This document shows positions 23,207-50,253 of a stretch of DNA of 64,000 nucleotides, piece by piece. A program made the position numbers and the translations under genes. Numbering within the stretch: the first letter of the stretch is position 1; each line of letters opens with the position of its first letter. The notes under the pieces were generated by a model. That model did not search any database and had not been told where the DNA came from. It saw only the letters and a list, made by a program, of their open reading frames with translations. The DNA lies in assembly GCF_018882335.1 (NCBI RefSeq), contig NZ_JACVOS010000002.1, forward strand, positions 62,001 through 126,000. Direction: 5' to 3'. The DNA comes from Polynucleobacter sp. AM-25C3 (GTDB lineage Bacteria > Pseudomonadota > Gammaproteobacteria > Burkholderiales > Burkholderiaceae).

Positions 23207-23240
23207 GTGTCATAAAAGGGTCATACTCAAAACGTATCGT
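23207..23240 (+). promoter_or_regulatory. PHO box and -10 element of the pst-pho operon
   Basis: Two 7-base repeats, GTGTCAT (23207-23213) and GGGTCAT (23218-23224), are separated by AAAA and match the PhoB consensus CTGTCAT-N4-CTGTCAT. Ten bases later stands TATCGT (23235-23240) as a -10. The position 45 bases before the pstS start fits PhoB-activated transcription. Confidence 0.85.
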
Positions 23241-23284
23241 TCAGCTATCGCAATATTGCGTTATTTATCTGAGGAACGATCCAC

Positions 23285-24307: not shown

Positions 24308-24341
24308 GTTTAGAGATTGATAGTAGTCAATCAAAACTAAT

Positions 24342-24369
24342 AAACAGCCTCACTCAAGTGGGGCTGTTT
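24342..24369 (+). terminator. Hairpin between pstS and pstC (partial terminator or RNA stabiliser)
   Basis: Arms 24342-24353 and 24358-24369 pair over 12 bases (one G-T) with a TCAA loop, ending in TTT. The T run is short, so partial read-through into pstC is expected. Such hairpins often protect the pstS message. Confidence 0.65.
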
Positions 24370-24392
24370 CAATATTTAAATAAGCTCAATAT

Positions 24393-25382
24393 ATGATGGA
24401 TATAACCCAGTCCGCTTCAATGCCGACGCCGCAGGCTCTTCGAATCGCTAAATATCAGCGTATTCAAGATTTCCTCTTTCATGGTATTACCCAATTTTTT
24501 GCGCTGTCAGTATTGATCGCATTGCTCGGTATTATTGCCTCTTTACTTTTCAATGCGTGGCCAGCGCTGCACACCTTTGGCCCTGCCTTCTTTTTTACCC
24601 AAGAGTGGGATATTGTGAATGGGGAGTTTGGTGGCCTGATTGCCATTTATGGCACCGTCGTCACTTCAATCATTGCATTGCTGATTGCGGTTCCATTGAG
24701 TTTCGGGATTGCTGTTTTTTTGACCGAGTTATGTCCAAGTGCGCTACGTAGGCCTTTAGGTACTGCAGTAGAGTTGCTGGCCGCTGTACCATCGATTATT
24801 TACGGTATGTTTGGCTTGTTTATTTTTGCGCCTCTATTTGCCGAGTATGTTCAACCAGCGCTTGCGGGAACCCTTGGACAAATTCCTGGGCTGGGTATTT
24901 TGTTTTCAGGAGCATTTAATGGTATTGGTGTTTTATGTGCCGGCCTCATCTTAGCGATGATGATTTTGCCGTTTATTGCTTCAGTCATGCGCGACGTATT
25001 TGAAATCGTTCCTCCGGTACTCAAAGAGTCTGCATACGGTATTGGTTGCACCACTTGGGAAGTAGTTAATAACGTAGTACTTCCGTACACGAAGGCTGGT
25101 GTTATTGGTGGCGTGATGCTTGGTTTGGGTAGGGCACTTGGTGAGACGATGGCTGTGACCTTCGTGATTGGTAATGCTCACCGCTTGTCCCCATCTTTAT
25201 TTGCCCCAGGAACTTCAATTGCCTCTACTTTGGCAAATGAGTTTGGTGAGGCTGAAGCGGGCAACCATTTATCTTCTTTATATGCCCTAGGATTAGCCCT
25301 GTTCATCATTACCTTTATTGTGTTGGCATGTGCTAAGTGGATGCTGAACAACATGGAGAAGAAGCAAGGACTAAAAACATGA
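24393..25382 (+). CDS. pstC: Phosphate ABC transporter permease PstC
   Basis: 329 residues with six predicted membrane helices. The permease motif [16 protein letters not shown] and the EAA-like loop ([27 protein letters not shown]) that contacts PstB are both present. It forms the inner-membrane channel with PstA. Its stop overlaps the pstA start (ATGA, 25379-25382). Confidence 0.96.
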
Positions 25383-26245
25383 ATAACGTTTCTAATATCG
25401 ATCCAGCACTGTTTTCTAAGCGGAAGCGCGCAAATAAGATTGGCTTAACCTTATCCATGTCTGCCATGGTTTTAGGTATGATTTTTCTGTTTTGGATTTT
25501 GGCTGTATTGTTTTTCAAAGGATTTTCTTCGCTCGATCTATCCATATTTACTCAAAGCACTCCAGCGCCTGGCTCTGAGGGTGGCGGCCTTGCTAATGCG
25601 ATCGTAGGTAGTTTGATGTTAGTGGGTTGCTGTACTTTAATTAGCACTCCTGTTGGAGTGCTGGCAGGCTTGTACCTCTCTGAATATGGAGATCGTAGTC
25701 GCATAGCTTCAGTCACTCGCTTTGTTACCGATATCATGCTTTCAGCACCTTCTATCGTGATTGGTTTGTTCGTTTACGCTCTAGTAGTTGCACAAGTTCG
25801 ACATTTCTCTGGTTGGGCGGGTACGATTGCACTGGCATTGATTGCTGTTCCAGTGGTTGTGCGTACCACCGAAAATATGTTGCGCTTAGTTCCTGGTAGC
25901 TTGCGTGAGGCAGCCTATGCTTTAGGTACGCCCAAGTGGAAAGTAGCCTTCATGATTACTTTGAGAGCAGCCCAATCTGGAGTGATGACAGGTATCTTGC
26001 TGTCCTTAGCTCGCGTTAGTGGCGAAACTGCACCGTTGTTGTTTACCGCACTCAATAACCAGTTCTTCTCCACCAATATGAATGCACCCATGGCCAACTT
26101 GCCAGTGGTAATTTTTCAGTTCGCCATGAGTCCGTATGACAACTGGGTCGATTTGGCTTGGGGTGGAGCGCTATTAATTACGATTGCTGTATTGGGCTTA
26201 AATATTTTGGCTCGAGTGGTATTCCGCGAGAAGGTCCAAGGATGA
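25379..26245 (+). CDS. pstA: Phosphate ABC transporter permease PstA
   Basis: About 288 residues from ATG 25379. Six membrane helices, the [12 protein letters not shown] segment and the EAA loop [21 protein letters not shown] are typical of PstA. The ORF is open 14 codons further upstream inside pstC, but ATG 25379 has AAGGA upstream and the usual 4-base overlap with the pstC stop. It pairs with PstC as the translocation pore. Confidence 0.95.
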
Positions 26246-27093
26246 TGAGCGATATGAAAACAATGTTTGACTTAAATCAGATTGATAGTCAAGGAGTGGG
26301 AACAAATATGAATACAAACCAACAAACACAAGCCCCGGCTAAGAATGCGCTTGAAGTACGCAATCTCAATTTCTTTTACGGATCTTTTCAGGGTCTCCAA
26401 GATATCAATTTAGATATCGAAGAGGGCAAAGTAACTGCATTTATCGGACCATCTGGTTGCGGTAAATCCACTTTGCTCAGAGCCTTGAATCGAATGTATG
26501 ACCTCTATCCTGGTCAGCGTGCAGAAGGTGAGATTAACTTCTACGGTCAAAATATCTTGGCCCCAGGTCAAGATTTGAATCTCCTGCGTTCAAGAATCGG
26601 CATGGTTTTTCAGAAGCCAACACCATTTCCAATGTCTATTTATGAGAATATTGCCTTTGGCGTACGTCTCTATGAAAGACTTTCTCGCTCTGAAATGGAT
26701 GAGCGCGTTGAGTGGGCTTTGAATAAAGCGGCACTTTGGAATGAGGCGAAAGACAAGCTTAACCAGAGTGGTTTATCTCTGTCTGGCGGTCAGCAGCAGC
26801 GTTTATGTATTGCCCGAGGCGTAGCGGTAAAGCCATCAGTTATTTTGCTAGATGAGCCAACTTCAGCCCTAGATCCAATCTCCACAGGTAAGATTGAAGA
26901 GTTGATTAATGAGCTCAAGCATGAATACACGATTGCCATCGTGACTCATAATATGCAGCAGGCAGCTCGCGTCTCCGATTACACTGCTTATATGTACCTT
27001 GGAAGTCTCATCGAGTACGGTAAGACTGATGAAATCTTCATCAAGCCTAAGCGTAAAGAAACAGAAGATTACATTACCGGCCGTTTCGGTTAA
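26242..27093 (+). CDS. pstB: Phosphate ABC transporter ATP-binding protein PstB
   Basis: Walker [11 protein letters not shown]-loop [22 protein letters not shown] signature LSGGQQQR and Walker [12 protein letters not shown] are all present, with the PstB-specific [18 protein letters not shown] segment. ATG 26242 overlaps the pstA stop and follows AAGG, giving 283 residues with an N-terminal extension. ATG 26308, preceded by AAGGAG, gives 261 residues, nearer the usual PstB length. It powers phosphate import and is thought to signal phosphate status through PhoU to PhoR. Confidence 0.95.
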
Positions 27094-27105
27094 TTGGAGA
27101 TATAA

Positions 27106-27813
27106 ATGCCAGATAAACACCTTTCATCACAATTTGATGCAGATTTAAATTCCCTCTCTAGTCGATTGCTAGAAATGGGCGGTCTTGTTGAGTCACAGAT
27201 TTCAACGGCGATGCGCGCATTTACGCAAATGGACGTTGAAACTTGCAATGTGGTTATTGCCAATGAGAAAATCGTTAACGATCTTGAAATTCAGATTGAT
27301 TTAGCTTGTACTGAATTGATTGCACGTCGCCAACCTACAGCGCGAGACTTGCGCTTGGTGATGGCAGTGTCTAAAGCGATTACCAATTTGGAGCGTGCTG
27401 GCGATGAGGCCGAGCGTGTTGCTAAGAGAACCAAACGTCTTATCGAGGCTGGTGCGACTTACAACATTAACGTTGCTGAAATTCGCTTATCTGGACAAAT
27501 GGCGATTTCATTATTGCGCCGTAGCTTAGATGCCTTTGCCCGCTTGGATACGGTTGCGGCTGCGGAAGTAGTTCAGGAAGATCGTCAGATCGATGAGGAA
27601 TTTAGAGGCTTTGTACGCAAGTTGATTTCTTACATGATGGAAGATCCACATATGATCTCTACTGGCTTGGACATGTTGACTATTGCTAAGGCGATCGAAC
27701 GTATTGGCGATCATGCAAAGAATATTGCCGAGTTCGTAATCTATATCGCTAAAGGCTCTGATGTGCGTCATATCCCGCACGAGGATTTGGTGCGCGAGGC
27801 GAATAAAGAATAA
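27106..27813 (+). CDS. phoU: Phosphate transport system regulator PhoU
   Basis: 235 residues with two repeated three-helix PhoU domains. Metal-binding ExxxD-type motifs are visible in NLERAGDEAERVAKR (about 90-105) and KAIERIGDHAKNIAEF (about 195-210). It connects the Pst transporter to PhoR and represses the Pho response when phosphate is plentiful. It is 12 bases after pstB in the same operon. Confidence 0.97.
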   Translation: MPDKHLSSQFDADLNSLSSRLLEMGGLVESQISTAMRAFTQMDVETCNVVIANEKIVNDLEIQIDLACTELIARRQPTARDLRLVMAVSKAITNLERAGDEAERVAKRTKRLIEAGATYNINVAEIRLSGQMAISLLRRSLDAFARLDTVAAAEVVQEDRQIDEEFRGFVRKLISYMMEDPHMISTGLDMLTIAKAIERIGDHAKNIAEFVIYIAKGSDVRHIPHEDLVREANKE

Positions 27814-27833
27814 GTAATATCAATACGGATTTC

Positions 27834-28550
27834 ATGATGACTCACCGCATATTGATTGTTGAAGATGAGCCTTCTATCGCCGAACTGATTGCGATTAACT
27901 TAACTCATGCTGGGTATGATGTTAAGAAGGCAATGCAAACTGACATTGCATTAAATATGATGCGCGACGAACTGCCCAGTTTGTTGATTTTGGATTGGAT
28001 GTTGCCGGGCAAGTCTGGCGTTCAGTTTGCTAGAGAGTTGCGGGCAAACGAGCGCACAAGATCTTTGCCAATTCTGATGCTCACCGCTAAAAGCGAAGAG
28101 TCCGATAAGGTGCTGGGCCTAGATTCGGGTGCGGATGACTATGTCACCAAGCCTTTCTCGCCGAAAGAGTTGGTTGCTCGTGTCAAGGCACTCTTGCGCC
28201 GCCAAACTCCAGTTGAAGATACGGGACCACTGTCTGTTGGACCGCTAAGGCTAGACCCTCTATCGCATCGAGTGACGGCTATTTGGCCTAATATGGACCC
28301 GCAAACAGTGTCATTGGGACCCACCGAATATCGATTACTTCAGTTTTTGATGGCCAACCCTGAAAGAGTCCACTCCAGAGCAAATCTGCTGGATAAGGTA
28401 TGGGGTAATGAGGTCTATATTGAAGAACGTACGGTGGATGTTCATATCAAGAGGTTAAGGGCGGCTTTGGCTCCCACAGATTCGGATCGTTATATCGAGA
28501 CGGTACGTGGAAGCGGTTATCGAATTACCAAGATCCCAACTCAGACCTAA
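27834..28550 (+). CDS. phoB: Phosphate regulon response regulator PhoB (OmpR family)
   Basis: 238 residues. The receiver domain (1-120) has the acidic pair E10/D11/E12, phospho-acceptor D54 in LILDWMLPG, T in MLTAKSE and K in VTKPFSPKEL. The C-terminal winged helix (about 135-235) ends GSGYRITK. It binds PHO boxes as a dimer when phosphorylated by PhoR. Its presence at the end of the pst operon supports reading the PHO-like sites in this window as functional. ATG 27837 is an alternative start. Confidence 0.96.
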   Translation: MMTHRILIVEDEPSIAELIAINLTHAGYDVKKAMQTDIALNMMRDELPSLLILDWMLPGKSGVQFARELRANERTRSLPILMLTAKSEESDKVLGLDSGADDYVTKPFSPKELVARVKALLRRQTPVEDTGPLSVGPLRLDPLSHRVTAIWPNMDPQTVSLGPTEYRLLQFLMANPERVHSRANLLDKVWGNEVYIEERTVDVHIKRLRAALAPTDSDRYIETVRGSGYRITKIPTQT

Positions 28551-28611
28551 ATAAGAGGCGCTTCTCAGGGCGGTTTTGTCCGCCGCCATCCAGATGCTCT
28601 AAGATTGTCGT

Positions 28612-29910
28612 ATGTTATCTGTTATCACCCGATTTGCCTTACTCATTTTCTTGGCGTTTCTTGCAGGCTATATTGCATTAGCCCAACTAGGTCCTATTTC
28701 AGCAATTGGCGCTGGAATTTGCGTGCTATCAATACCTTTAATTTATTCGTACATTAATTTAGCCCGCTTACGTAAGTTTACGGTTGCTGATTCTGTTGAA
28801 TCCATGCCATTGCCTAGTGGTTACTGGGAAGAGATATTTTTCCGCCTGCAGCGCTTAGTTCGAAATCTGAAGCAGCAAATGCGGTCTATTGAAAAGCAAC
28901 ACAGTCGCTTTATAGAGGCTTTTCAGGCCTCTCCTAATGGCATTGTGATGCTCGATGACCAAGACCACATTGAATGGTGTAACGCTATTGCTGAGCAATT
29001 CTTTGGTTTAAATTTCAAGCGCGATGTAATGCAAAGAATCAACTTCCTTATTCGTCGCCCAGAATTCGTTCAATACCTTTACAGACGTCAATTTGATGAG
29101 TCTTTACTGCTGGAAAGAATGGGGCCTGCTGCAAATCTCAGTTTGATGTTGCAAGCTTTTCCGTTCGGCGATATGCGCCACCTCTTGCTCATTCAGGATG
29201 TCACCGATTTGCAAAAAGCCGATGCTATGCGACGAGATTTCGTGGCCAATGTTTCTCATGAGATGAGAACGCCAATTACGGTGTTGATGGGTTTTTTAGA
29301 AACCATGCAATCACTGGATTTGGATAAGGCCCAGCAAAATCAATATTTTGAGATGATGATGTCTCAGGCTCAACGCATGAAGAGTTTGGTTGAGGACTTG
29401 TTAACTCTCGCCAACCTAGAAGCCAATACCTTGCCAGCTCCGATGCAGGCTATTAGCATCCCAACCTTAATGGCCCTTCTCAAGAATGATGCGGAAGTGC
29501 TCTCACAAGGACATCATGCATTTAATTTTGAGGTCTCCAGCCCAAGTAATTTAATGGGGGAAGAGCGCGAGATTCTGTCTGCATTTGGAAATCTAGTTTC
29601 CAATGCAATTCGATACTCTCCAGATATTGCTTCAATTAGTACTAATTGGCGTGTTAATGAGCGCGGGGAGGGTGAGTTTTCTGTGACTGATACTGGCCCC
29701 GGAATTGCTTCAGAGCATCTCTCTCGATTAACTGAGCGCTTTTATCGTGTAGATAGAAGTCGATCTAGGGATACTGGAGGTACGGGGCTGGGCTTGGCAA
29801 TTGTTAAACATATTGCCAATCGTCATCAAGCCCAGTTAATTATTGAGAGTACACCCGGCAAGGGGAGCACATTTACTTTGCGCTTCCCTAAAGAGCGTGT
29901 TGTTGCTTAA
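28612..29910 (+). CDS. phoR: Phosphate regulon sensor histidine kinase PhoR
   Basis: 432 residues. Two N-terminal membrane helices (about 5-50) are followed by a PAS domain (about 95-200). The dimerisation helix carries H216 in VANVSHEMRTPITVL, and the ATPase domain has N (FGNLVSNAIRYS), G1 (DTGPGI) and G2 (GTGLGLAIVKHI) boxes. As in other PhoR proteins there is no large periplasmic sensor, so phosphate status must arrive via PstB/PhoU. A 61-base gap with a small GGCGG/CCGCC hairpin (28569-28584) separates it from phoB. Confidence 0.96.
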   Translation: MLSVITRFALLIFLAFLAGYIALAQLGPISAIGAGICVLSIPLIYSYINLARLRKFTVADSVESMPLPSGYWEEIFFRLQRLVRNLKQQMRSIEKQHSRFIEAFQASPNGIVMLDDQDHIEWCNAIAEQFFGLNFKRDVMQRINFLIRRPEFVQYLYRRQFDESLLLERMGPAANLSLMLQAFPFGDMRHLLLIQDVTDLQKADAMRRDFVANVSHEMRTPITVLMGFLETMQSLDLDKAQQNQYFEMMMSQAQRMKSLVEDLLTLANLEANTLPAPMQAISIPTLMALLKNDAEVLSQGHHAFNFEVSSPSNLMGEEREILSAFGNLVSNAIRYSPDIASISTNWRVNERGEGEFSVTDTGPGIASEHLSRLTERFYRVDRSRSRDTGGTGLGLAIVKHIANRHQAQLIIESTPGKGSTFTLRFPKERVVA

Positions 29911-36263: not shown

Positions 36264-38210
36264 TTAAGTAATTTTGATGCCGGTAGGCTTTGCAGTGATG
36301 TAGCCTACCGCAGCACCAAATCGATCCTTGTAATTCTTTTGAATTAAGGGATTCAATATCGGCATGACTTTTGCATGTAATTTTCCTAGCCAATCACCCG
36401 GATGTTGAAAGTTGGCGGTGATGTAAGTCCAGCCATTGAGATTATCAACCACACTTAAGCCAGTTGCTTCTGCGCCAGATGGCATAGAAGCAATTCTGCT
36501 GAGTTTCTTGGTGTCTACGTTATAGGCCCAAATAAAATTATTCACATGGGTGCTGCTGTCTTCGCCAATAAAGAGGGTCCTGAGTTTTTCAGAAAACTTG
36601 AGGTTATCTGGATTGGAGATGGTATTGGGGTCGGCCAAGTTCCCGAGTTCGTCTTGCTCAATATCTCGACCAATGAGCAGTGCTGATAGTTGACTAGGAA
36701 CCCAATGACTCTTGATGGGGCTTCCTGATTGATCGTGTTGATTGCCCTCAAGCTTACTTATCATGACGGCGCCTGCGATTAAAGGCTTTTCGAGTTCAAT
36801 CATGCTCTGCGAATTCCAGCCCTTACCCCCTTTGATCATTGAATCTTGGATGTTTTGCAGGGCAAAGTACGCCACTTTATCTTTGAGATTGGCGCAAGTT
36901 CCTTCCATCTTGCTAAAGCCCATACTGCCACCCATTAAATAGGCATAGCGATGGGTTTCTAAAAATGCTGCTGCCTTTTCCATTCCGGGTTTGAGCTTTA
37001 CCCAATTTGCTATACCGTCGTAGTAAATTTTGGTGAATGTGTCGTCATTAGGATCAGCCTTTAAAACGGTCATGATGTCCGATGGTTTTAAAGTCAGCGC
37101 TAGTTTTTTGATTTCATCACTAGTGGCGTGACCGAGCTTGATCCAAGATAATTTTGCACCTTCATCTTTTGGATCAATGGAAAATCCCTGACCGAGTTTG
37201 GCTACATACAGCGTTCCAGAAGACAGGTCAGACTCTTTATCCGCAATGAACAGAAATAGGCCGCTATTCGTATAATCATCACCCATCAGAACAGTTCTTC
37301 TATCGGGCATCACTTCGACTAGCTCATGTGAAATCCGACCAAGACAATAGTGTTTTACAAGAGTGCCTGTTCCATCAGGGTTTACGGTTACTTCAGGCAG
37401 GTGGCCATAGTTGTATGGATTTGCACTAGTTTCATTGCCATAGAGATTCTTACTAAAGGCTTTAAAGCGTTTATTCTCATGCGCAAAGGGTGCGTCTGGC
37501 TCATACTCCTCACTAGATAAATGCGTATTCCATGGTGATAGGCTGGCACCACAGGTGATCCATAAGCCTTGAGCGCTAGAAGTATCTACAGGGGTGTATT
37601 TGACTAAGGTGAGTTTGCCGCTGGCCGGATCCTGGTTGAGTGTTAAGACGGCAATTTGAGAGGGCAGTACCCCGTACATTTTTTCCTTGCCCTGATTGGT
37701 ATTCGTATATTCAAATTGAACCACTGCAAATACCGTATTGCCTCGCACCCCTTTAACGTTTGCTTTTTCAAGCTTCAATAAAGACATGCCATCTGGACAA
37801 TCAGAAAAGAATTGTCTTTCTTTGCCTGGTACGGAGTTATCCATAATCGGCCTATTGTGAATATCGACATATCCTCCAGCCAATATTTTTCCGTTTTTAC
37901 CATCTGGTACCAGATCTCCAGTGATAAAGAATGGCTCATAAGCAAGCTTGTATGTTTTTTTATTTCCATTCTGCAGGGTGATTTCAAGCATCGATCCCAC
38001 TGAAGTGGTAGCCATTGCTTCTGGATTGGCTAGTGAAGGCGCCTCCATGGCGATAAATTCTGCAAACTTAAAATTGGAAGCAGATTCGGCAGCAATTAAT
38101 GGGGAGCTATTAAAGATGGCGGCAAAACCGGCAGATCCTATGGGGAGCATGGGGGTGCCAACAGCCATTTTGATAAATGAGCGACGCTTGAGTGCAGTTG
38201 GATTTGACAT
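36264..38210 (-). CDS. phoX: PhoX-type alkaline phosphatase (Tat-exported)
   Basis: About 648 residues from MSNPTALKRRSF. A twin-arginine signal (KRRSFIKMAVG) is followed by a PhoX/DUF839 beta-propeller: GSMLEITLQNG, GGYVDIHNRP, CGASLSPWNTHLSSEEYEPD, YNYGHLPEVTV, MGDDYTNSGLFLF and SVVDNLNGWTYITANFQHPG. The Glu/Asp-rich loops hold calcium and iron in known PhoX. It releases phosphate from organic esters in the periplasm. The ORF extends 20 codons upstream, but Met 38210 places the Tat motif correctly. A PHO box lies at 38288-38321. Confidence 0.93.
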   Translation of the reverse strand: MSNPTALKRRSFIKMAVGTPMLPIGSAGFAAIFNSSPLIAAESASNFKFAEFIAMEAPSLANPEAMATTSVGSMLEITLQNGNKKTYKLAYEPFFITGDLVPDGKNGKILAGGYVDIHNRPIMDNSVPGKERQFFSDCPDGMSLLKLEKANVKGVRGNTVFAVVQFEYTNTNQGKEKMYGVLPSQIAVLTLNQDPASGKLTLVKYTPVDTSSAQGLWITCGASLSPWNTHLSSEEYEPDAPFAHENKRFKAFSKNLYGNETSANPYNYGHLPEVTVNPDGTGTLVKHYCLGRISHELVEVMPDRRTVLMGDDYTNSGLFLFIADKESDLSSGTLYVAKLGQGFSIDPKDEGAKLSWIKLGHATSDEIKKLALTLKPSDIMTVLKADPNDDTFTKIYYDGIANWVKLKPGMEKAAAFLETHRYAYLMGGSMGFSKMEGTCANLKDKVAYFALQNIQDSMIKGGKGWNSQSMIELEKPLIAGAVMISKLEGNQHDQSGSPIKSHWVPSQLSALLIGRDIEQDELGNLADPNTISNPDNLKFSEKLRTLFIGEDSSTHVNNFIWAYNVDTKKLSRIASMPSGAEATGLSVVDNLNGWTYITANFQHPGDWLGKLHAKVMPILNPLIQKNYKDRFGAAVGYITAKPTGIKIT

Positions 38211-38287
38211 AGCGGATATGTTTTTCTTTATTAGGCTTGTATTGGCTGCGGCAAATAAGCGTGGAGCCAATGTTTGGTTAAGAATTT

Positions 38288-38321
38288 ATTGTCTAGCCGG
38301 AATATGACAGTTTGATTATTG
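38288..38321 (-). promoter_or_regulatory. PHO box and -10 of phoX
   Basis: Read leftward: CAATAAT (38321-38315), CAAA, a perfect CTGTCAT (38310-38304), ten bases, then GACAAT (38293-38288). Spacing equals that of the pstS site, and it lies about 78 bases before the phoX start. Confidence 0.7.
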
Positions 38322-39416: not shown

Positions 39417-39450
39417 GTGTCATGATAATTTCATAAAATAGACATATTCA
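39417..39450 (+). promoter_or_regulatory. PHO box and -10 of ppx
   Basis: GTGTCAT (39417-39423), GATA, ATTTCAT (39428-39434), ten bases, TATTCA (39445-39450). The first repeat is the same as in the pstS box and the spacing is identical. It ends 27 bases before the ppx start. Confidence 0.7.
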
Positions 39451-39477: not shown

Positions 39478-41040
39478 TTGGCTTTATATAAAGACGTCTC
39501 TGGAAAAAATGCATCTGACTTAGTCGCCGCTGTCGACTTGGGCTCGAATAGTTTTCGGATGTTGGTAGCTCAAGTTGTTCATACGCCCTCTGGTACTCAG
39601 CTCCGTCCTATTGATACCTTAAGGGAATCTGTTCGGCTTGCAGCAGGCTTAACAGACAACAAATTACTAGGTAATGACGCCTATCAGCGTGGCATTACCG
39701 CGATACGCCGCTTTGGTGAGCGGATCCGAGGTTTTGACCCATCTAAAGTTCGTGCGGTTGCTACCAATACCCTTCGGGTCGCAAAAAATGCCTCCAACTT
39801 TATTCGTGATGCTGAGGAGGCCTTAGGTTTCCCCATTGAAATCATTGCAGGCGTTGAAGAGGCTCGCTTAATTTATATTGGCGCCGCCCATGAGGTCCCG
39901 GCAGTCCAGGGCAATCGCTTGGTGGTGGATATTGGCGGAGGCTCCACTGAGCTCATTATCGGCAGGGGCTATGAGCCTAAGCTGATGGAGAGTCTGTACA
40001 TTGGTTGCGTTTCTCATAGTTTGCGTTTCTTCCCTAAAGGGAATATTGATTCTCATGCCTTTAAAGAAGCTGAGCTAGCTGCGCGCCGTGAGATCCAAGT
40101 GATTTCTGGGGCGTATTTGAAGTCCGGCTGGAAGCAGGTGATTGGTTCTTCCGGAACTGCTCGCGCCTTGGCTGAACTCATTGCAGAAAACAACTTTAAT
40201 GGCCAGGTGGATAGCCTCACTATGGGGCGAGTCAATGGCTCTAGCGGTTTGATCACTCGCGATGGCCTAAGAGCCATGAAGAGGCATCTGCTGAATTATG
40301 AGCACATCAGTCAGGTAGAGTTGAATGGTCTAAAAGATGATCGACGCTCAGTCTGGCCTGGTGGACTTGCGATCATGATTGCCGTGTTTGATGAGCTTGG
40401 TATTGAGAGTATGGAGGTGACTGATGCTGCCTTACGCATCGGCGTTCTATATGATCTATTGGGGCGCTCTCAGCATGACGATATGCGTTTTGTGACGGTC
40501 GAGCAATTTATGCAACGCTATGCTGTAGATCGAGAGCAGGCTAAGCGCGTTGGTAATTTAGCTGCTGAATTCTTGGCTCAACTACCTAAGCCGGATTCCG
40601 AGAGCAGGGCAGACAATATTGCCTTGCTGCAATGGTCTGCTAATTTGCATGAAATTGGTTTATCAATCTCACATAATGGATATCACAAGCATTCAGCCTA
40701 TATTGCAGGTAATGCCGATATGCCAGGGTTCTCTAAGAATGATCAGGCCAGATTAGCTGCTTTATTGATTGGTCATGCTGGAAAATTAGGTAAGCTGGCT
40801 AATAACGCTAGCTTCGCCGATTGGCGTATGTTGTTCTGTTTACGTCTGGCCCAAGTACTTTGCCGTGGCCGAAGTGATGGTAATCTGCCTAAGGTGAAAG
40901 TCTCAGAGCATGATGGCTCTTATTTAGTGAGTCTTTCAAGAGAGTGGGCTAAAGAACATCCCCTCACAGAATTTAGCTTACAAAAAGAAGCGGCCGAGTG
41001 GGAGCGTATCGGCCGTCCTTACAGCATTAGCTTAAAGTAA
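39478..41040 (+). CDS. ppx: Exopolyphosphatase (Ppx/GppA family)
   Basis: 520 residues starting at TTG 39478. The actin-like ATPase fold is seen in AAVDLGSNSFRMLVAQV (phosphate 1) and VVDIGGGSTELIIG (phosphate 2). The C-terminal HD-like helical part starts near 330 (HDDMRFVTVEQFM, NLHEIGLSISHNGYHKHSAYI). It removes terminal phosphates from polyphosphate, or pppGpp gamma-phosphate if GppA-like; length and domains favour Ppx. A PHO box upstream suggests that polyphosphate is mobilised when phosphate is scarce. Confidence 0.93.
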   Translation: MALYKDVSGKNASDLVAAVDLGSNSFRMLVAQVVHTPSGTQLRPIDTLRESVRLAAGLTDNKLLGNDAYQRGITAIRRFGERIRGFDPSKVRAVATNTLRVAKNASNFIRDAEEALGFPIEIIAGVEEARLIYIGAAHEVPAVQGNRLVVDIGGGSTELIIGRGYEPKLMESLYIGCVSHSLRFFPKGNIDSHAFKEAELAARREIQVISGAYLKSGWKQVIGSSGTARALAELIAENNFNGQVDSLTMGRVNGSSGLITRDGLRAMKRHLLNYEHISQVELNGLKDDRRSVWPGGLAIMIAVFDELGIESMEVTDAALRIGVLYDLLGRSQHDDMRFVTVEQFMQRYAVDREQAKRVGNLAAEFLAQLPKPDSESRADNIALLQWSANLHEIGLSISHNGYHKHSAYIAGNADMPGFSKNDQARLAALLIGHAGKLGKLANNASFADWRMLFCLRLAQVLCRGRSDGNLPKVKVSEHDGSYLVSLSREWAKEHPLTEFSLQKEAAEWERIGRPYSISLK

Positions 41041-41043
41041 ATC

Positions 41044-41982
41044 CTACAAGCCTAAGAAGTGCTTAGCGTAGCGTGGATTGATTTCTGACAAACGCAACAT
41101 AGTGAGCACATCAGCGGTATTAAAGTCTGGATCCCAGGCTGGAGCGCTACAAATCTTCGCACCTAACTTCAGGTAGCCCTTGATCAATGGCGGTGGCTCC
41201 ACTTGTAAGCCGCCGTTGAGGCGATCTAGAGGCAAGGGCAGACGTGGGAAGGCATGATTCTCTACCGGCGCCATTTGATCATTGCTAAGTGAGTTGTAGA
41301 GGCTTGCAGCGAAGTGACCGCCATCGGCCATTGGAATGCTGGCGCAACCGAGCATGATTTCATAATTGTGCTTTTGCATGTATTGAGCAAGACCACTCCA
41401 TAAGGCCATGATGACTGCGCCAGAGCGGTAGTCTGCGTGAACACAGGATCTGCCAAGCTCCACCATTTTTGGGCGCAAATGGTTCAAGCGTGATAAATCA
41501 AATTCGGAATCAGAATACAAACGACCAATTTCTAAAGCCTTATGTGGAGGCAGCACGCGGTATGTGCCAACTACCTTGAGGGATTCTTGGTCACGAATCA
41601 GTAAATGATCGCAATAGGCATCAAAATCATCAATATCTAGGTTTTCTGCATTCTTAGGCAGATTGGCGCCCATTTCTTCCGCAAATACCTTGTAGCGTAG
41701 GCGCTGAGCTTCCTTAATCTCGCTGGCGTTGCTGGCCCAAGTAATTTGGAAGGCAGGGCGTTTTGGCTTAGCAATTTTCTTTTCAAGAACTATAGCCTCT
41801 TGAATATCCGGTTCAGCACGAGCCCGAGTGGCAAACTTCTTACCAAAAAGCTTCTTGGCTATTTTCTTGGAGAATAATTTTTTAATGGCTTCTGTTTTGC
41901 TCTTCTTGGCTTTCTTTGGCTTACTTTCAAAGCGAGAATTGAAGATATCAAATGCACCTAGTGGGTTTGGAATATCCGACAT
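41044..41982 (-). CDS. olsB: L-ornithine N-alpha-acyltransferase (OlsB-like, GNAT)
   Basis: 312 residues. The first 75 are a strongly basic extension (repeated KK, FSKKIAKKLFGKKF) that may bind membranes. The acyltransferase core starts at ITWASNASEIKEAQRLRYKVFAEEMG, followed by YCDHLLIRD, VVGTYRVLPP, VELGRSCVHADYRSGAVI and GCASIPM, the pattern of OlsB and related N-acyl amino acid synthases. It would use an acyl-ACP to make lyso-ornithine lipid. It is the last gene of the plcP-agt-dgkA-olsB operon, 41 bases after dgkA, and its partner acyltransferase is divergent at 44358. Confidence 0.82.
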   Translation of the reverse strand: MSDIPNPLGAFDIFNSRFESKPKKAKKSKTEAIKKLFSKKIAKKLFGKKFATRARAEPDIQEAIVLEKKIAKPKRPAFQITWASNASEIKEAQRLRYKVFAEEMGANLPKNAENLDIDDFDAYCDHLLIRDQESLKVVGTYRVLPPHKALEIGRLYSDSEFDLSRLNHLRPKMVELGRSCVHADYRSGAVIMALWSGLAQYMQKHNYEIMLGCASIPMADGGHFAASLYNSLSNDQMAPVENHAFPRLPLPLDRLNGGLQVEPPPLIKGYLKLGAKICSAPAWDPDFNTADVLTMLRLSEINPRYAKHFLGL

Positions 41983-42023
41983 AGTTTTCCTTAATGAGAT
42001 TCTCTAATGGTAGAAGTGCTGTA

Positions 42024-42428
42024 TTACCAATTCATGACAAGTGGTGTACATATAGTGATCCAAAGTAGTGCTGCTATGAGTAGGGATAGCATTACAGCAG
42101 CAGAACCAAAGTCTTTTGCTCGTTTTGACAGGTCATGGTGATCAAAGGAGATGCGATCAATCGCCGCCTCCACACTTGAATTGAGCAATTCAACAACCAA
42201 AACCATGATCAAGGAGGCAATTAGGGCGCATTTTTCTATGGGGGCGATGGGAAGAAAAAATGCTACCGGCGTCAGTACGGTCAGCAGGGTGAGCTCTTGT
42301 CTAAAGGCGCTTTCTTCTTCGAATGCATACACAATCCCACACCACGAGTTCTTGGCTGCATGCCAAGCTCTGGTGAGTCCCCGATTGCCTTTATGGGGGT
42401 TTTGATTGATGTTGTACGGAGTGGTCAA
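42024..42428 (-). CDS. dgkA: Diacylglycerol kinase
   Basis: 134 residues, three membrane helices. Signature VELLNSSVEAAIDRI with the active-site Glu/Asn, and KRAKDFGSAAVM, are those of the DgkA family. The N-terminal NRGLTRAWHAAKNSWCGIVYAFEEESAFRQEL is also typical. It phosphorylates diacylglycerol to phosphatidate. In this operon it may recycle the diacylglycerol released by the PlcP-like enzyme. It lies nine bases after the glycosyltransferase gene. Confidence 0.93.
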   Translation of the reverse strand: MTTPYNINQNPHKGNRGLTRAWHAAKNSWCGIVYAFEEESAFRQELTLLTVLTPVAFFLPIAPIEKCALIASLIMVLVVELLNSSVEAAIDRISFDHHDLSKRAKDFGSAAVMLSLLIAALLWITICTPLVMNW

Positions 42429-42437
42429 AATGCGGCC

Positions 42438-43466
42438 TTAAGCGAGGGCGGTAACATGAACTTCAGTTGATGGAACAGGCTTGAGGTGATTGGCAAATTG
42501 CTCTGAGGCGGCTCTCCAGGAGAACTTTTCAGCATGCGCTCTTGCAACCTCTCGAGGAATCTTAAGCGCTTGTAGACAGGCTTCCCGCAAGTCCTCGTTC
42601 ATGGCACCTGCAGGTGAATTACCTAGGACGTCAATTGGTCCTGTAACGGGATAAGCAGCAACAGGTGTACCGCATGCCATAGCTTCTAATAGAACCAGAC
42701 CAAAGGTATCTGTTTTGCTTGGGAAGACAAACACATCAGCTGCGGCATACACCTTGGCTAACTCCTGTTGTTGAAGAACGCCAAGATAATTAATGTCAGG
42801 ATATTTTTCTTTGATGCTTGCCATGGCGGGACCATCGCCTACAACCCATTTAGATCCTGGTAGATCAATTTCTAAAAAGGCGTTGATGTTCTTTTCAACC
42901 GCTACTCGACCCACATAGAGGAAGATCGGATGCGCAGTATTGAGCGTTTTTGAATCTTGCATTTTGAAGATATCAAGATCTACACCTCTAGACCACAACA
43001 CCACATTATTAAGACCGTACTCTTCTAAATCATCTTTAACCACAATGGTTGGCGCCATTACCGCCATGGATGGCCCATGGAACCAGCGAATAAAAGCATA
43101 AGTAATGGCAAGTGGAGTGCCGGTACGTGCTTTGACGTACTCAGGAAAGCGTGTGTGATAAGCCGTAGAGAGGGGGAGGTTGTTTTTGACTGCATAAGAA
43201 CGGGCCGATAAACCTAATGGACCTTCTGTAGCGATATGCATCGCATCCGGTGCGAATGCTTTTATTTTGCGGGCTACTTCTTTGCCAGGAAATAAAGAGA
43301 GGGCAATATCAGGATAAGTAGGGCATGGAATGGATCTAAAGCCATTGGGAGTAATCATTTCCACTTCATGGCCCATGGCAATCAGTTCGGCACGCGTTTG
43401 CTTTAGCGTTCTCACAACGCCGTTCACTTGTGGATCCCATGCATCAGTGATGATCATAATTTTCAT
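42438..43466 (-). CDS. GT4 family glycosyltransferase, Agt-like (diacylglycerol glycosyltransferase candidate)
   Basis: 342 residues with a GT-B fold. The N-terminal half has IITDAWDPQVNGVVRTL and HIATEGPLGLSARSYA. The C-terminal half has FLYVGRVAVEKNI, VVGDGP and the nucleotide-sugar motif FVFPSKTDTFGLVLLEAMACGTPVAAYPV. The family includes glycosyltransferases that make glyco- or glucuronosyl-diacylglycerol beside plcP in phosphate-limited bacteria (Agt). Overlap with the PlcP-like gene by four bases supports that reading; PI-mannosyltransferase-like activity is the alternative. Confidence 0.78.
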   Translation of the reverse strand: MKIMIITDAWDPQVNGVVRTLKQTRAELIAMGHEVEMITPNGFRSIPCPTYPDIALSLFPGKEVARKIKAFAPDAMHIATEGPLGLSARSYAVKNNLPLSTAYHTRFPEYVKARTGTPLAITYAFIRWFHGPSMAVMAPTIVVKDDLEEYGLNNVVLWSRGVDLDIFKMQDSKTLNTAHPIFLYVGRVAVEKNINAFLEIDLPGSKWVVGDGPAMASIKEKYPDINYLGVLQQQELAKVYAAADVFVFPSKTDTFGLVLLEAMACGTPVAAYPVTGPIDVLGNSPAGAMNEDLREACLQALKIPREVARAHAEKFSWRAASEQFANHLKPVPSTEVHVTALA

Positions 43467-44272
43467 ACGGTAGCCTCTTTAATAAGTGCTTCAACAGCGG
43501 GTTGGAGGGTAATTGCAGGAGCTTGCGCTGGATCACCTTGGATCTTGGTCCAGTAAATAATTTTGAGTTCGCCTTCAACTGTCTCAACTAAGGCAGATAG
43601 GCTTTCAACCCAATCACCATCATTGCAATAGAGCAGACCATCGATTTCGCGGATCTCGGCTTTATGAATATGGCCACACACGACACCATCGCAATCACGC
43701 AAGCGTGCTTCCCTGGCCATAATGTGTTCAAAGTCAGCGATGTAACTCACTGCATTTTTAACTTGATGTTTGAGGTATTGAGAAAGAGACCAATACTGCA
43801 GGCCCATCCTGACCCGCAACATATTGAAATAGCGGTTGATATATAAGATGAAGGAGTACAGAGTGTCACCAACGTACGCTAGCCATTTGGCGTATTGCAT
43901 CACACCATCAAATAGATCGCCATGGGTAACCCAAAGCTTGCGACCATCTAGAGTGGTGTGGATAACCTCTTCTTGAACCTTAATATCACCAAAGGACATG
44001 CCAAAATACTGTCGGGCGGCTTCGTCATGATTGCCGGGAATATAAATGACCTCGGCACCTTTACGTGCCTTACGTAATAATTTTTGAACTACGTCATTGT
44101 GGGCTTGAGGCCAATAAAAAGATTGTTTCAGTCGCCAGCCATCGATAATGTCGCCAACCAAATAAAACTGATCAGCCTCATTGTGTTTCAAGAAATCGAG
44201 GAGGTAGTTTGCCTGACACCCTGATGTTCCTAGGTGTACATCTGAAATCCAGATAGCTCTGTAATGCATCAT
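43463..44272 (-). CDS. plcP: PlcP-like metallophosphoesterase (lipid-remodelling phospholipase C candidate)
   Basis: 269 residues. Calcineurin-type metal motifs in order: ISDVHLGT, LVGDIIDGW, IPGNHDE, VTHGDLFD and CGHIHKAE. This set occurs both in UDP-2,3-diacylglucosamine hydrolase homologues and in PlcP, the enzyme that removes phosphate head groups from phospholipids in phosphate-starved Sinorhizobium and marine bacteria. The overlap with an Agt-like glycosyltransferase and the olsB, dgkA and olsA genes beside it favour PlcP. Start ATG 44272; ATG 44269 is an alternative. Confidence 0.78.
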   Translation of the reverse strand: MMHYRAIWISDVHLGTSGCQANYLLDFLKHNEADQFYLVGDIIDGWRLKQSFYWPQAHNDVVQKLLRKARKGAEVIYIPGNHDEAARQYFGMSFGDIKVQEEVIHTTLDGRKLWVTHGDLFDGVMQYAKWLAYVGDTLYSFILYINRYFNMLRVRMGLQYWSLSQYLKHQVKNAVSYIADFEHIMAREARLRDCDGVVCGHIHKAEIREIDGLLYCNDGDWVESLSALVETVEGELKIIYWTKIQGDPAQAPAITLQPAVEALIKEATV

Positions 44273-44313
44273 GAGTAAGCATTAAGCCCAATCAATATGT
44301 AAGCCATGTGACG

Positions 44314-44347
44314 CTTTTAAGTCAATTTGATGACTTGATTTATATTG
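44314..44347 (-). promoter_or_regulatory. Weak PHO-box-like site before the plcP operon
   Basis: Read leftward: CAATATA, AATC, AAGTCAT (44336-44330), ten bases, TAAAAG (44319-44314). The spacing copies the other sites, but the first repeat is poor. The same bases contain an inverted repeat AAGTCA-N6-TGACTT (44319-44336) that another regulator could use. Confidence 0.3.
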
Positions 44348-44357
44348 ATGCTTGTTT

Positions 44358-45134
44358 ATGAAAAACCTTTCTCCAAACTCTCAGTCAATCGAGACGCCAA
44401 AACCAGTGCGTCTTTGGATATGGACCCAAATCTGGGTTCATGTGCTTTGTGGCGTCTGTACACTTTCTTTTATCTTTCCCTTCCTTAATCGCAGAAGCAA
44501 AGACGAAAAAATACAGGAGTGGTCTAAACGCCTTCTGAAAATATTTCATATTGAGCTGGTGGTACAGGGTGCTGCCTTACTTGAAAATACGCCGCACTTG
44601 ATCGCCTCAAACCATATCTCGTGGATCGATATTCACGTGATCAATGCATTTAGGCCTGTCCGTTTTGTTGCGAAATCTGAGGTGGAGGGGTGGCCCATAT
44701 TTGGCTGGATGGCCAAGCAACTGGGCACCGTATTTATCCGCAGAGACAGCTCGCGGCATGCAAGGCAAGTCGTAGGTCAGATGGCAGAGGTATTGAAAAC
44801 AGAATCCATCTGCATATTTCCGGAGGGAACCTCCACTATCGGCGATGCTGTTTTACCGTTTAAACCCAATCTCTTTGAATCGGCCATCGAAGCCCAAGCT
44901 CCCGTTTTTCCGCTCGCCGTTCAATATCTCTCAAAAACGACGGGGGTGAGGAGTTTGTCCGCGGCCTTTATTGGGGACATGGGTTTATTAGAGTCGATGT
45001 CCAGCATCATCAAGAATCGATCTTTAGTGGCTCAAATTACTGTTTTACCCTCATATTCCAGCCGTGATCAGGCGCCTGTTGATCGTAAGCAGTTGGCAAA
45101 TTACTGCCAGGAATCCATCGCTAAAACCCTTTAA
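44358..45134 (+). CDS. olsA: 1-acyl-sn-glycerol-3-phosphate acyltransferase family, OlsA-like
   Basis: About 258 residues from ATG 44358 (TTG 44352 precedes in frame). One N-terminal membrane helix (about 17-40), then the PlsC motifs: NHISWIDIHV (HX4D), the FIRRDSSRHAR block, FPEGTSTIGDAVLPFKPN and APVFPLAVQY. Such enzymes acylate lysophosphatidate, or lyso-ornithine lipid in the case of OlsA. Divergence from an operon ending in olsB favours OlsA, though housekeeping PlsC activity cannot be ruled out. Confidence 0.72.
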   Translation: MKNLSPNSQSIETPKPVRLWIWTQIWVHVLCGVCTLSFIFPFLNRRSKDEKIQEWSKRLLKIFHIELVVQGAALLENTPHLIASNHISWIDIHVINAFRPVRFVAKSEVEGWPIFGWMAKQLGTVFIRRDSSRHARQVVGQMAEVLKTESICIFPEGTSTIGDAVLPFKPNLFESAIEAQAPVFPLAVQYLSKTTGVRSLSAAFIGDMGLLESMSSIIKNRSLVAQITVLPSYSSRDQAPVDRKQLANYCQESIAKTL

Positions 45135-45141
45135 ACAGCAT

Positions 45142-45175
45142 TTGTAATAAAAGTGTCATATCCTTGGGATACAAA
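45142..45175 (+). promoter_or_regulatory. PHO box and -10 of ppk2
   Basis: TTGTAAT (45142-45148), AAAA, GTGTCAT (45153-45159), ten bases, TACAAA (45170-45175). The spacer and second repeat resemble the pstS site. It overlaps a spurious upstream start of the ppk2 ORF. Confidence 0.65.
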
Positions 45176-45199: not shown

Positions 45200-46105
45200 A
45201 TGACGTCAAAACATAAAGAGATGGCTGAGTGGTACAAGCGCGCTCAAGAAGAAATCTTAGATAGCATGGACGAAGAGCTCGAAATGGAGCTCGATGATGA
45301 TCGTCTATCTCAGGACGGCGGGAGTGGATCCGTTATCCCTCGCCAAGTCTATTTCAAAGAGCTTTTCCGCTTGCAGGGAGAGTTGGTTAAGCTGCAAGAT
45401 TGGGTCGTCGAGAACAAGCTCAAGGTTGCCGTTCTGTTTGAAGGTCGAGACTCCGCAGGTAAGGGTGGTGCAATTAAACGTATAACCCAACGGCTTAATC
45501 CCCGCGTATGTAAGGTAGTTGCCTTAACGGCCCCAAGTGAGCGAGAGAAGACCCAATGGTATTTTCAAAGATATATCTCCCAGCTACCGGCTGGAGGTGA
45601 GATTGTCTTGTTTGATCGAAGTTGGTACAACCGCGCCGGTGTCGAGAGGGTGATGGGTTTTTGTACCGATGCGGAGTACGAAGAGTTTCTGCGAACAGTG
45701 CCAGACCTCGAGCGCATGATGATCAATTCAGGAATTATTCTGATTAAGTACTGGTTCTCTATTTCCGATGATGAGCAGTACAACCGCTTCATGATGCGTA
45801 TTCATGATCCACTAAAGCAATGGAAGTTGAGCCCAATGGACTTAGATGCGCGTCGTCATTGGGAGGCTTACACCAAAGCAAAAGAGACCATGCTGGAGCG
45901 CACGAACATTCCTGAGGCCCCTTGGTGGGTTGTGGCTGCCAATGATAAGAAAAAAGCACGCTTAAATTGCATTACGCACTTTCTTGATCAAATTCCGTAT
46001 AAAGAAATCAACCACCCAGAAATTACCTTGCCGGCCCGCGTCCATAATCCAGATTATTTGCGTGGTCCAGTACCCCGGGAAATGTACGTACCCGAGGTCT
46101 ACTAG
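45200..46105 (+). CDS. ppk2: Polyphosphate kinase 2
   Basis: 301 residues from ATG 45200 with GAGGAAG before it. The PPK2 core shows Walker A FEGRDSAGKGGAIKR, a lid region with RYISQLPAGGE, and Walker B VLFDRSWYNRAGVERVMGF, followed by DLDARRHWEAYTKAKE. The acidic N-terminus (about 10-35) is typical of class I PPK2. It transfers phosphate between polyphosphate and nucleotides, usually favouring nucleotide formation. The longer ORF from TTG 45164 would begin inside the PHO-box promoter and is rejected. Confidence 0.93.
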   Translation: MTSKHKEMAEWYKRAQEEILDSMDEELEMELDDDRLSQDGGSGSVIPRQVYFKELFRLQGELVKLQDWVVENKLKVAVLFEGRDSAGKGGAIKRITQRLNPRVCKVVALTAPSEREKTQWYFQRYISQLPAGGEIVLFDRSWYNRAGVERVMGFCTDAEYEEFLRTVPDLERMMINSGIILIKYWFSISDDEQYNRFMMRIHDPLKQWKLSPMDLDARRHWEAYTKAKETMLERTNIPEAPWWVVAANDKKKARLNCITHFLDQIPYKEINHPEITLPARVHNPDYLRGPVPREMYVPEVY

Positions 46106-50164: not shown

Positions 50165-50253
50165 GGCATTTCCTTCATTCCTGATGCATGCCACTGCTTG
50201 AGTGGCGCAATAAATCAAATAGCCAAACAGTTCAGTTTGACAGGTGGAGCGAT

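What the first reader, a model, noticed from the sequence alone, without database searches (positions are those of the whole stretch)
41044..45134. plcP-agt-dgkA-olsB operon with divergent olsA: a compact phospholipid-replacement cassette
Four reverse-strand genes with spacings of -4, 9 and 41 bases encode a PlcP-like phosphoesterase, an Agt-like glycosyltransferase, diacylglycerol kinase and an OlsB-like acyltransferase; an OlsA-like acyltransferase is divergent. PlcP/Agt (glycolipid) and OlsB/OlsA (ornithine lipid) are separately known phosphate-saving routes. Having both plus DgkA in one locus, flanked by PHO-boxed ppx and ppk2, suggests one integrated lipid switch.
Basis: partly seen in the sequence, partly recalled or inferred. 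Interest (0 to 1): 0.85.

Follow-up and report, generated by a model that had tools for sequence, protein, structure and literature searches.

The report
Phosphate-starvation membrane lipid swap cassette
A freshwater Polynucleobacter-type bacterium keeps, in one gene cluster that looks switched on by phosphate starvation, the genes predicted to break down phospholipids and replace them with two kinds of phosphorus-free membrane lipid, and most sampled members of its genus keep the same cluster.

Summary
In detail: olsB, dgkA, a GT4 glycosyltransferase and a PlcP-type phosphoesterase form one reverse-strand run (spacings -4, 9, 41), an OlsA-like acyltransferase diverges from plcP, and ppx and ppk2 carry Pho-box-like sites. 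The phosphoesterase is not the lipid A enzyme LpxH, which is encoded elsewhere in this genome. Of 151 genus genomes, 141 have PlcP and OlsB, within 6 kb in 137; eight lack PlcP, OlsB and DgkA. In other Burkholderiaceae the parts sit at separate loci (plcP-agt-dgkA; ppx beside olsB; olsA elsewhere), so the cassette seems to have been assembled in the Polynucleobacter lineage. Best reading: a PhoB-controlled phospholipid-replacement cassette with a DAG-glycolipid arm and an ornithine-lipid arm, and the genome's only DgkA as salvage or overflow. Both arms, and their joint Pho-dependence, are published for other bacteria; what seems new is the physical assembly and its near-fixation in a genus. 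No lipid chemistry was tested.

The parts
43463..44272 (-). plcP-like metallophosphoesterase (predicted intracellular phospholipase C: phospholipid to DAG plus phospho-headgroup)
   Evidence: PF12850/PF00149; LpxH models far below cut-off; separate LpxH in genome; GNHD in 220 of 220 surveyed loci, GNRD in the genome's own LpxH
42438..43466 (-). agt-like GT4 glycosyltransferase (predicted DAG glycosyltransferase)
   Evidence: GT4 Pfam domains; next to plcP in the family-wide operon; overlaps plcP by 4 bp. Acceptor and sugar not established
42024..42428 (-). dgkA, diacylglycerol kinase, the only one found in the genome
   Evidence: PF01219 110.8 bits, cut-off 22.3; single match in own genome
41044..41982 (-). 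olsB-like N-acyltransferase (predicted ornithine:acyl-ACP N-acyltransferase)
   Evidence: PF13444; the two OlsB models rank first in NCBIfam, below their cut-offs; 66-69% identical to the single OlsB match of 8 other Burkholderiaceae genomes
44352..45134 (+). olsA-like O-acyltransferase, divergent from plcP (ATG at 44358)
   Evidence: PF01553; NCBIfam OlsA models 123.6/123.4 bits, PlsC domain model 95.7; a second PF01553 protein exists elsewhere and scores 48.6/32.1 on the OlsA models
44297..44336 (-). Pho array of four half-sites at 11-bp steps upstream of plcP (18/28 to CTGTCAT)
   Evidence: Only 5 positions of the window on both strands score as high or higher, this one included; position-conserved in 91 genus loci (84 distinct): half-sites at -64, -53, -42, -31 from plcP average 5.03, 5.02, 6.27, 4.51 of 7, overall mean 1.81
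45142..45159 (+). Pho-box-like site upstream of ppk2
   Evidence: 11/14; 57 of 86 genus loci >=11, 0 of 86 on the other strand
39417..39434 (+). Pho-box-like site upstream of ppx
   Evidence: 11/14; 54 of 90 genus loci >=11, 1 of 90 on the other strand
39478..41040 (+). ppx exopolyphosphatase, tail-to-tail with olsB
   Evidence: PF02541; TIGR03706 309 bits, cut-off 307; convergent neighbour of olsB in 80 of 80 genus loci
45200..46105 (+). ppk2 polyphosphate kinase 2
   Evidence: TIGR03707 368.7 bits, cut-off 301.8; in 78 of 80 genus loci
36264..38270 (-). phoX-like alkaline phosphatase (flank; Pho-box-like site 38304-38321)
   Evidence: PF05787 68.9 bits, cut-off 24; site 11/14
23285..29910 (+). 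pstS-pstC-pstA-pstB-phoU-phoB-phoR, the likely controlling system, with a Pho-box-like site at 23207-23224
   Evidence: an NCBIfam equivalog over cut-off for each of the seven; site 11/14

Best explanation
A PhoB-controlled membrane-remodelling cassette. When phosphate is low, PhoB binds the half-site array between plcP and olsA. PlcP hydrolyses membrane phospholipids to diacylglycerol and releases the phospho-headgroup. Agt glycosylates the DAG to a phosphorus-free glycolipid; the genome has an NDP-sugar dehydrogenase, so a glucuronosyl product is possible. OlsB and OlsA make ornithine lipid in parallel from ornithine and acyl donors. DgkA, the only DAG kinase found, returns surplus DAG to phosphatidic acid, limiting DAG build-up during starvation and salvaging it when phosphate returns. 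Ppx and Ppk2 on either side adjust polyphosphate. Shown here: gene families, no second DgkA, separate LpxH, conserved Pho sites, conserved order, joint absence. Inferred: operon transcription, enzyme activities, lipid products, direction of DgkA flux, and whether olsA answers to the same array.
For: Separate LpxH over cut-off, GNHD vs GNRD. DgkA single copy; NDP-sugar dehydrogenase present; a second acyltransferase of the PlsC kind elsewhere. Pho array: three-half-site score >=16 in 81 of 91 genus loci, 0.05% of single-base shuffles, 1 of 91 on the opposite strand. Order kept in 80 of 80 fetched genus loci. PlcP and OlsB both in 141 of 151 genus genomes, within 6 kb in 137; 8 of 151 lack PlcP, OlsB and DgkA. 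Linkage recurs outside the genus: an OlsB hit in the fetched stretch around PlcP in 9 of 57 loci, in six family codes. Literature, passages only: P. putida BIRD-1 remodelling set (PMC5082522); plcP-agt and DAG glycolipids (PMC4796936 section 13, PMC8528852, PMC9239053); OlsB homologues in all Burkholderia s.l. species searched there, Pho boxes predicted in 21 of 43 genomes with one matrix and all 43 with a second (PMC7814305).
Against: The window's own array is weak: 18/28 over four half-sites, 13/21 over three (81 of 91 genus loci reach 16), and its best two-half-site score, 9/14, is equalled or beaten at 264 positions of the window. OlsB and OlsA score below their NCBIfam cut-offs, though an OlsB of a Burkholderia-group genome does too. 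On the PlsC domain model the window protein (95.7) scores above the presumed PlsC (81.3), so that model does not separate them. Agt's best NCBIfam match is a GlcNAc-PG synthase model, far below cut-off, so its acceptor is uncertain. PlcP was not aligned with an experimentally characterised PlcP. dgkA is detached in 11 of 138 genus genomes. A kinase making phosphatidic acid works against phospholipid removal; its role here is a guess. Broken copies do not always come in pairs: plcP has an internal stop with olsB open in G202 and G243, and olsB is split with plcP open in G214. In Burkholderia s.s. ornithine lipids are constitutive (PMC7814305), so Pho control cannot be assumed.
Confidence: 0.76

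Rival explanations
1. Neighbourhood by co-regulation only: the genes sit together because all are Pho targets, but the glycolipid arm, the ornithine arm and DgkA work independently; there is no integration beyond shared PhoB control. (This shares the enzymes and regulation of the best explanation and denies only the coupling.)
For: The region is a Pho island (pst-phoBR, phoX, ppx, ppk2). In other Burkholderiaceae the arms sit at separate loci. dgkA is detached in 11 of 138 genus genomes.
Against: agt overlaps plcP, and olsB-agt-plcP stay together even where dgkA is away (L160, L169, L170). PlcP, OlsB and DgkA are jointly absent in 8 genomes. These facts fit co-regulation as well, so sequence hardly separates the two readings.
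Confidence: 0.45
2. The phosphoesterase is a lipid A enzyme (second LpxH-like UDP-diacylglucosamine hydrolase) and the GT4 acts in envelope glycan synthesis, so the locus is not lipid remodelling.
For: Public names for homologues are LpxH or UDP-2,3-diacylglucosamine diphosphatase; the only solved structures matched are LpxH.
Against: Separate LpxH over cut-off in the same genome; model scores 37 and 44 bits against cut-offs 190 and 134; GNHD not GNRD; Pho array upstream; linked to olsB in 137 of 141 genus genomes.
Confidence: 0.06
3. DgkA is a housekeeping kinase (for example recycling DAG from periplasmic glucan decoration, recalled) that only rides along in the operon.
For: It is the only DGK found in the genome; in 11 genus genomes dgkA is present but away from plcP.
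Against: Next to agt-plcP in 59 of 59 loci of other Burkholderiaceae-type genera; each of the 8 genus genomes without PlcP and OlsB also lacks DgkA; the discussion of PMC5082522 counts DagK among PHO-dependent remodelling proteins, although its passage on the phoBR mutant names PlcP and OlsAB and not DagK.
Confidence: 0.3
4. The GT4 glycosylates phosphatidylglycerol or another lipid rather than DAG, so the second product is not a phosphorus-free glycolipid.
For: Best NCBIfam hit is the N-acetylglucosaminyl phosphatidylglycerol synthase model, 90.5 bits.
Against: Far below that model's cut-off of 480; the next hit is alpha-monoglucosyl-DAG synthase (66.4 bits, cut-off 400), also far below. Its place downstream of plcP matches published plcP-agt operons (PMC4796936 section 13).
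Confidence: 0.12

Closest known systems
plcP-agt lipid-remodelling operons (Pelagibacter HTCC7211, Erythrobacter, Methylosinus, Pseudomonas aeruginosa)
   Same: PlcP gene next to a GT4 Agt gene; Pho boxes predicted; DAG glycolipids shown by the authors.
   Different: The passages read mention no olsB, olsA or dgkA in those operons; in Methylosinus the olsA and olsB locus tags (..._11897..._112024) are not neighbours (PMC9239053).
OlsBA ornithine-lipid pathway (Sinorhizobium; Burkholderia cenocepacia BCAL1281)
   Same: OlsB-like and OlsA-like acyltransferases; this OlsB is 66-69% identical to the single match in eight other Burkholderiaceae genomes. That those are orthologues of BCAL1281 is inferred.
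   Different: There olsB is tail-to-tail with ppx in 7 of 8 genomes (1.7 kb away in B. arboris), behind a histidine-phosphatase-type gene, without plcP-agt-dgkA; the best olsA match lies elsewhere.
Pho-dependent lipid-remodelling set of Pseudomonas putida BIRD-1 (PlcP, DagK, OlsA, OlsB)
   Same: The same four functions, reported as PHO-dependent (PMC5082522, passages).
   Different: olsAB (PPUBIRD1_0974-0975) and plcP (PPUBIRD1_1390) are far apart there; here one cluster.
plcP-agt-dgkA operon of Burkholderia, Paraburkholderia, Caballeronia, Trinickia, Pandoraea, Cupriavidus, Ralstonia
   Same: Same three genes and order in 59 of 59 loci.
   Different: No OlsB, OlsA, Ppx or PPK2 hit (45 bits or more) in the fetched flanks, which reach 10 kb at most and are short in several.

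Membership tests
PlcP (intracellular phospholipase C) | Calcineurin-like metallophosphoesterase domain and motifs | tested here: met
   PF12850 50.6 bits, PF00149 45.2 bits; GD..D, GNHD, HGD and GH.H in 220 of 220 surveyed loci
PlcP (intracellular phospholipase C) | Distinct from the LpxH of the same genome | tested here: met
   LpxH at G000:C51 223.7 bits, cut-off 190.35; window protein 37.3 bits; GNHD vs GNRD
PlcP (intracellular phospholipase C) | Sequence relationship to a characterised PlcP (S. meliloti, Phaeobacter, P. aeruginosa PA3219) | not tested
   No characterised sequence was retrieved; inferred from order-wide homology and operon context
PlcP (intracellular phospholipase C) | Hydrolyses phospholipids to DAG | not testable with these tools
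   Needs enzyme assay
Agt (DAG glycosyltransferase, GT4) | GT4 domains, gene next to plcP | tested here: met
   PF13439, PF13692, PF00534; adjacency
Agt (DAG glycosyltransferase, GT4) | Uses DAG as acceptor | not testable with these tools
   The 25 NCBIfam matches shown are below cut-off, so the substrate is unresolved
OlsB | PF13444 domain, OlsB models as best NCBIfam matches | tested here: met
   132.7 bits; two OlsB equivalogs rank first
OlsB | Score above the two NCBIfam OlsB cut-offs | tested here: not met
   179.7 and 179.2 bits vs 350 and 320. An OlsB of a Burkholderia-group genome also fails (173.0 and 166.7), so I take these cut-offs as lineage-specific; I call the protein OlsB-like
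OlsA | Closer to OlsA than to PlsC models; separate PlsC-type protein in genome | tested here: met
   123.6 vs 95.7 bits; the paralogue in C27 scores 48.6 on OlsA and 81.3 on the PlsC domain model
OlsA | Score above NCBIfam OlsA cut-offs | tested here: not met
   123.6 and 123.4 vs 300; called OlsA-like, not filed as OlsA
DgkA (prokaryotic diacylglycerol kinase) | PF01219 over gathering score | tested here: met
   110.8 vs 22.3 bits
Pho regulon | Pho boxes upstream of the operon, conserved in relatives | tested here: met
   Met in relatives at the same position; the window's own array is weak
Pho regulon | PhoB-dependent expression at low phosphate | not testable with these tools
   Needs transcripts or a phoB mutant

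The most novel reading that the evidence does not exclude
A two-arm phosphorus-free-lipid operon that evolution assembled from three ancestral loci (plcP-agt-dgkA; ppx facing olsB; olsA) in the Polynucleobacter lineage, so that one PhoB array between plcP and olsA sets phospholipid breakdown, glycolipid synthesis, ornithine-lipid synthesis and DAG salvage together. DgkA would be a partition valve between glycolipid and phospholipid. In this genus lipid replacement would be kept or lost as one heritable module, so that phosphorus niche could be read from one locus.
Probability: 0.4. Interest if true: 0.62.

Novelty: new variant of a known kind. Interest (0 to 1): 0.47.

Why it matters
The genus is Polynucleobacter by its named relatives, a common freshwater bacterioplankton group (ecology recalled). 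Two library searches held the genus name together with lipid-remodelling terms, and none of the rows shown mentions the genus (17 of 17 papers listed; 20 of 317 listed). If the reading is right, one locus predicts whether a strain can lower its phosphorus quota, and genus members that lack or have broken the cassette are natural controls. It also makes testable what DgkA does in lipid remodelling.

Tried and rejected
LpxH as the identity of the phosphoesterase was considered and rejected. The window acyltransferase as the general PlsC was judged unlikely, not excluded. A single-site Pho-box scan at 11/14 found nothing in the plcP-olsA gap of the window; only relatives showed the array. A consensus promoter and terminator scan gave no more than shuffles: 5 vs 8.8 and 5 vs 5.4. 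A direct comparison with a characterised PlcP or Agt was not achieved. The motif pattern 'D..HL' was mis-written and its count is ignored. Structure prediction was not used, because a shared metallophosphoesterase fold would not separate PlcP from LpxH activity.

Limits and dropped rows. One search scored only the 7,999 candidates sharing most words and listed 120. From only the 60 long hits with E of 2.1e-74 or better were fetched; a partial hit in G029 (2.8e-35) and the weak, mostly LpxH-like hits were left out. One search reports 144 of 151 genomes with a match; two of these (G142, G156) are weak LpxH-like hits and were not counted as PlcP. In one search the DgkA list lacks G223, whose row was cut (its table gives a match at 9.7e-19). 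The 80 loci were picked from the higher-identity part, leaving out hits near contig ends, so the deep genus members are under-represented. Some genomes enter twice by different routes (91 loci, 84 distinct upstream sequences).


Full report
WHAT IS THERE. The reported genes are present at the reported coordinates and spacings. Pfam gives PF13444 (olsB-like), PF01219 (dgkA), GT4 domains (agt-like), calcineurin-like phosphoesterase (plcP-like) and PF01553 (olsA-like), with Ppx and PPK2 as flanks. The window lies in a 2.1 Mb genome of 56 contigs. Two genomes behind named Polynucleobacter loci (L164, L167) give the same OlsB coordinates as two genomes listed as same genus, which supports the genus name. 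The same window holds pstSCAB-phoU-phoBR, each with an NCBIfam equivalog over cut-off.

THE PHOSPHOESTERASE IS NOT LpxH. The genome has a separate LpxH at C51 scoring 223.7 bits against a cut-off of 190.35. The window protein scores 37.3 on that model and 44.5 on a second LpxH model, cut-off 134. Its metal-binding motif is GNHD, as in 220 of 220 surveyed loci; the genome's own LpxH has GNRD, as do the two solved LpxH chains shown aligned. Databases nevertheless label such proteins LpxH. I did not align it to a characterised PlcP; that remains a gap.

THE OTHER ENZYMES. OlsB models rank first for the olsB product but below their cut-offs; an OlsB of a Burkholderia-group genome falls below too. 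It is 66-69% identical to the only OlsB match in each of eight other Burkholderiaceae genomes. The olsA product scores higher with OlsA models (123.6) than with the PlsC domain model (95.7). A second PF01553 protein in the genome, next to ORFs that look by eye like glyS and gmhB, scores 48.6 on OlsA and 81.3 on that PlsC model. The window protein thus outscores it on both, so the call rests on the OlsA models and context; it is called OlsA-like. DgkA is the only PF01219 protein found in the genome. One NDP-sugar dehydrogenase is over cut-off, so glucuronosyl-DAG is possible.

PHO CONTROL. Sites of 11/14 to CTGTCATN4CTGTCAT lie just before pstS, phoX, ppx and ppk2: four of seven such sites in the window, about 5.3 expected by chance anywhere. 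The plcP-olsA gap has no such site in the window, but L035 has 13/14 there. Over 91 genus loci (84 distinct sequences), half-sites at -64, -53, -42 and -31 from plcP average 5.03, 5.02, 6.27 and 4.51 of 7, overall mean 1.81; three-half-site scores of 16 or more occur in 81 of 91, in 0.05% of single-base shuffles and in 1 of 91 on the other strand. The window, at 13 of 21, is one of the ten below 16. Its four-half-site score of 18/28 is reached by only 5 positions on both strands of 64 kb, itself included. In 300 bases upstream of plcP, 74 of 138 loci from the order and named sets reach 11/14, 4 on the opposite strand. The array points at plcP and ends 21 bases before the olsA ATG, so whether olsA uses it is open.

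CONSERVATION. In an order survey of 120 genomes, 60 long PlcP hits (E of 2.1e-74 or better) lie in 58 genomes; all 60 neighbourhoods were fetched. The full unit is in 3 of 3 genus members there. A genus survey of 151 genomes gave PlcP in 142 (some broken or cut by contig ends), OlsB in 142 and DgkA in 140. PlcP and OlsB are both in 141 and within 6 kb in 137; in the other four they are on different contigs. Of 138 with all three in my table, DgkA is beside plcP or olsB in 127 and away in 11. Eight genomes lack all three; five of these are listed as 95% complete or more (G142, G156, G190, G219, G238). G188 lacks only PlcP; G228 lacks OlsB and DgkA, its PlcP starting 782 bases from a contig start. 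Of 80 neighbourhoods read from higher-identity members, 80 keep ppx-olsB-dgkA-agt-plcP|olsA and 78 also ppk2; two show olsB in two pieces.

ORIGIN. In 59 of 59 loci (L094-L152) labelled Burkholderia, Paraburkholderia, Caballeronia, Trinickia, Pandoraea, Cupriavidus or Ralstonia (one Bordetella MAG, one Burkholderiaceae MAG) plcP-agt-dgkA stand together without ols, ppx or ppk2 in the fetched flanks. In 7 of 8 such genomes tested olsB lies tail-to-tail with ppx at 46-165 bp; in the eighth (B. arboris) it is 1.7 kb away on the same strand. An ORF with LILWRHAxAE lies just upstream of olsB in all eight; the three of these that I searched match the histidine phosphatase family PF00300. The best OlsA match in each of the eight is on another contig than olsB, or 524 kb away, at 35-40% identity, so its orthology is unsure. 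The simplest account is that plcP-agt-dgkA came to stand in front of olsB, in place of the histidine phosphatase gene, with olsA divergent. A MAG labelled Rhodocyclaceae (L154) has plcP-agt-dgkA-histidine phosphatase-olsB, a possible intermediate or an independent join. Three deep genus loci (L160, L169, L170) have ppx-olsB-agt-plcP|olsA without dgkA between; in L170 dgkA lies 5.6 kb off, beyond ppx. Outside the genus an OlsB hit falls within the fetched stretch in 9 of 57 loci, six family codes; in L065, L071 and L075 within 1 kb and on the strand of plcP or agt. OlsB presence in the other order genomes was not surveyed, so no rate is claimed.

MECHANISM. See Best explanation. Shown by sequence: families, order, Pho sites, paralogue counts, joint absence. 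From literature passages: PlcP releases DAG and Agt glycosylates it (PMC4796936 section 13, PMC8528852, PMC9239053); PlcP, DagK, OlsA and OlsB called PHO-dependent in P. putida BIRD-1 (PMC5082522; its phoBR-mutant passage names PlcP and OlsAB only). Inferred: all fluxes and the DgkA role.

NOVELTY. Both arms and their joint use are known. In the library searches (capped lists) and passages read I saw no plcP-agt-dgkA-olsB operon with divergent olsA and no mention of Polynucleobacter in this context. [quoted passage not shown] Hence: new variant of a known kind.

Noticed in passing
window 23207-29910: pstSCAB-phoU-phoBR with a Pho-box-like site ends about 11 kb before the lipid genes, so sensor, regulator and lipid targets share one chromosomal region.
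   Followed up: partly
window 30257-30733 and 38378-39094; CorA 30789-31799: Two MgtC-family proteins and a CorA-family magnesium transporter lie between the pst-pho and lipid parts; a possible link of magnesium and phosphate homeostasis.
   Followed up: no
G135, G209, G212, G223, G263: In these single-contig genus genomes plcP carries stops or is cut short and olsB is broken too, as if the cassette decays as a unit. Not always: plcP is split in G139 with olsB nearly whole, has a stop in G202 and G243 with olsB open, and is open in G214 with olsB split.
   Followed up: partly
L154 2180-5831: A MAG labelled Rhodocyclaceae has plcP-agt-dgkA-histidine phosphatase-olsB, with a pilin-like ORF (by eye) downstream.
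   Followed up: partly
21 of 80 genus loci (for example L246, L254); also L035, L164: A second PPK2, oppositely oriented, lies beyond the first (53-55% identical to the window's in L035 and L164).
   Followed up: no
G166:C1:9782-10690: One genus genome has a second OlsB (71% identical) far from the cassette.
   Followed up: no
window 46978-48074 and 48083-50218: Two chromate-transporter-family ORFs and a TonB receptor whose best NCBIfam match is ZnuD, below cut-off, follow the lipid region.
   Followed up: no
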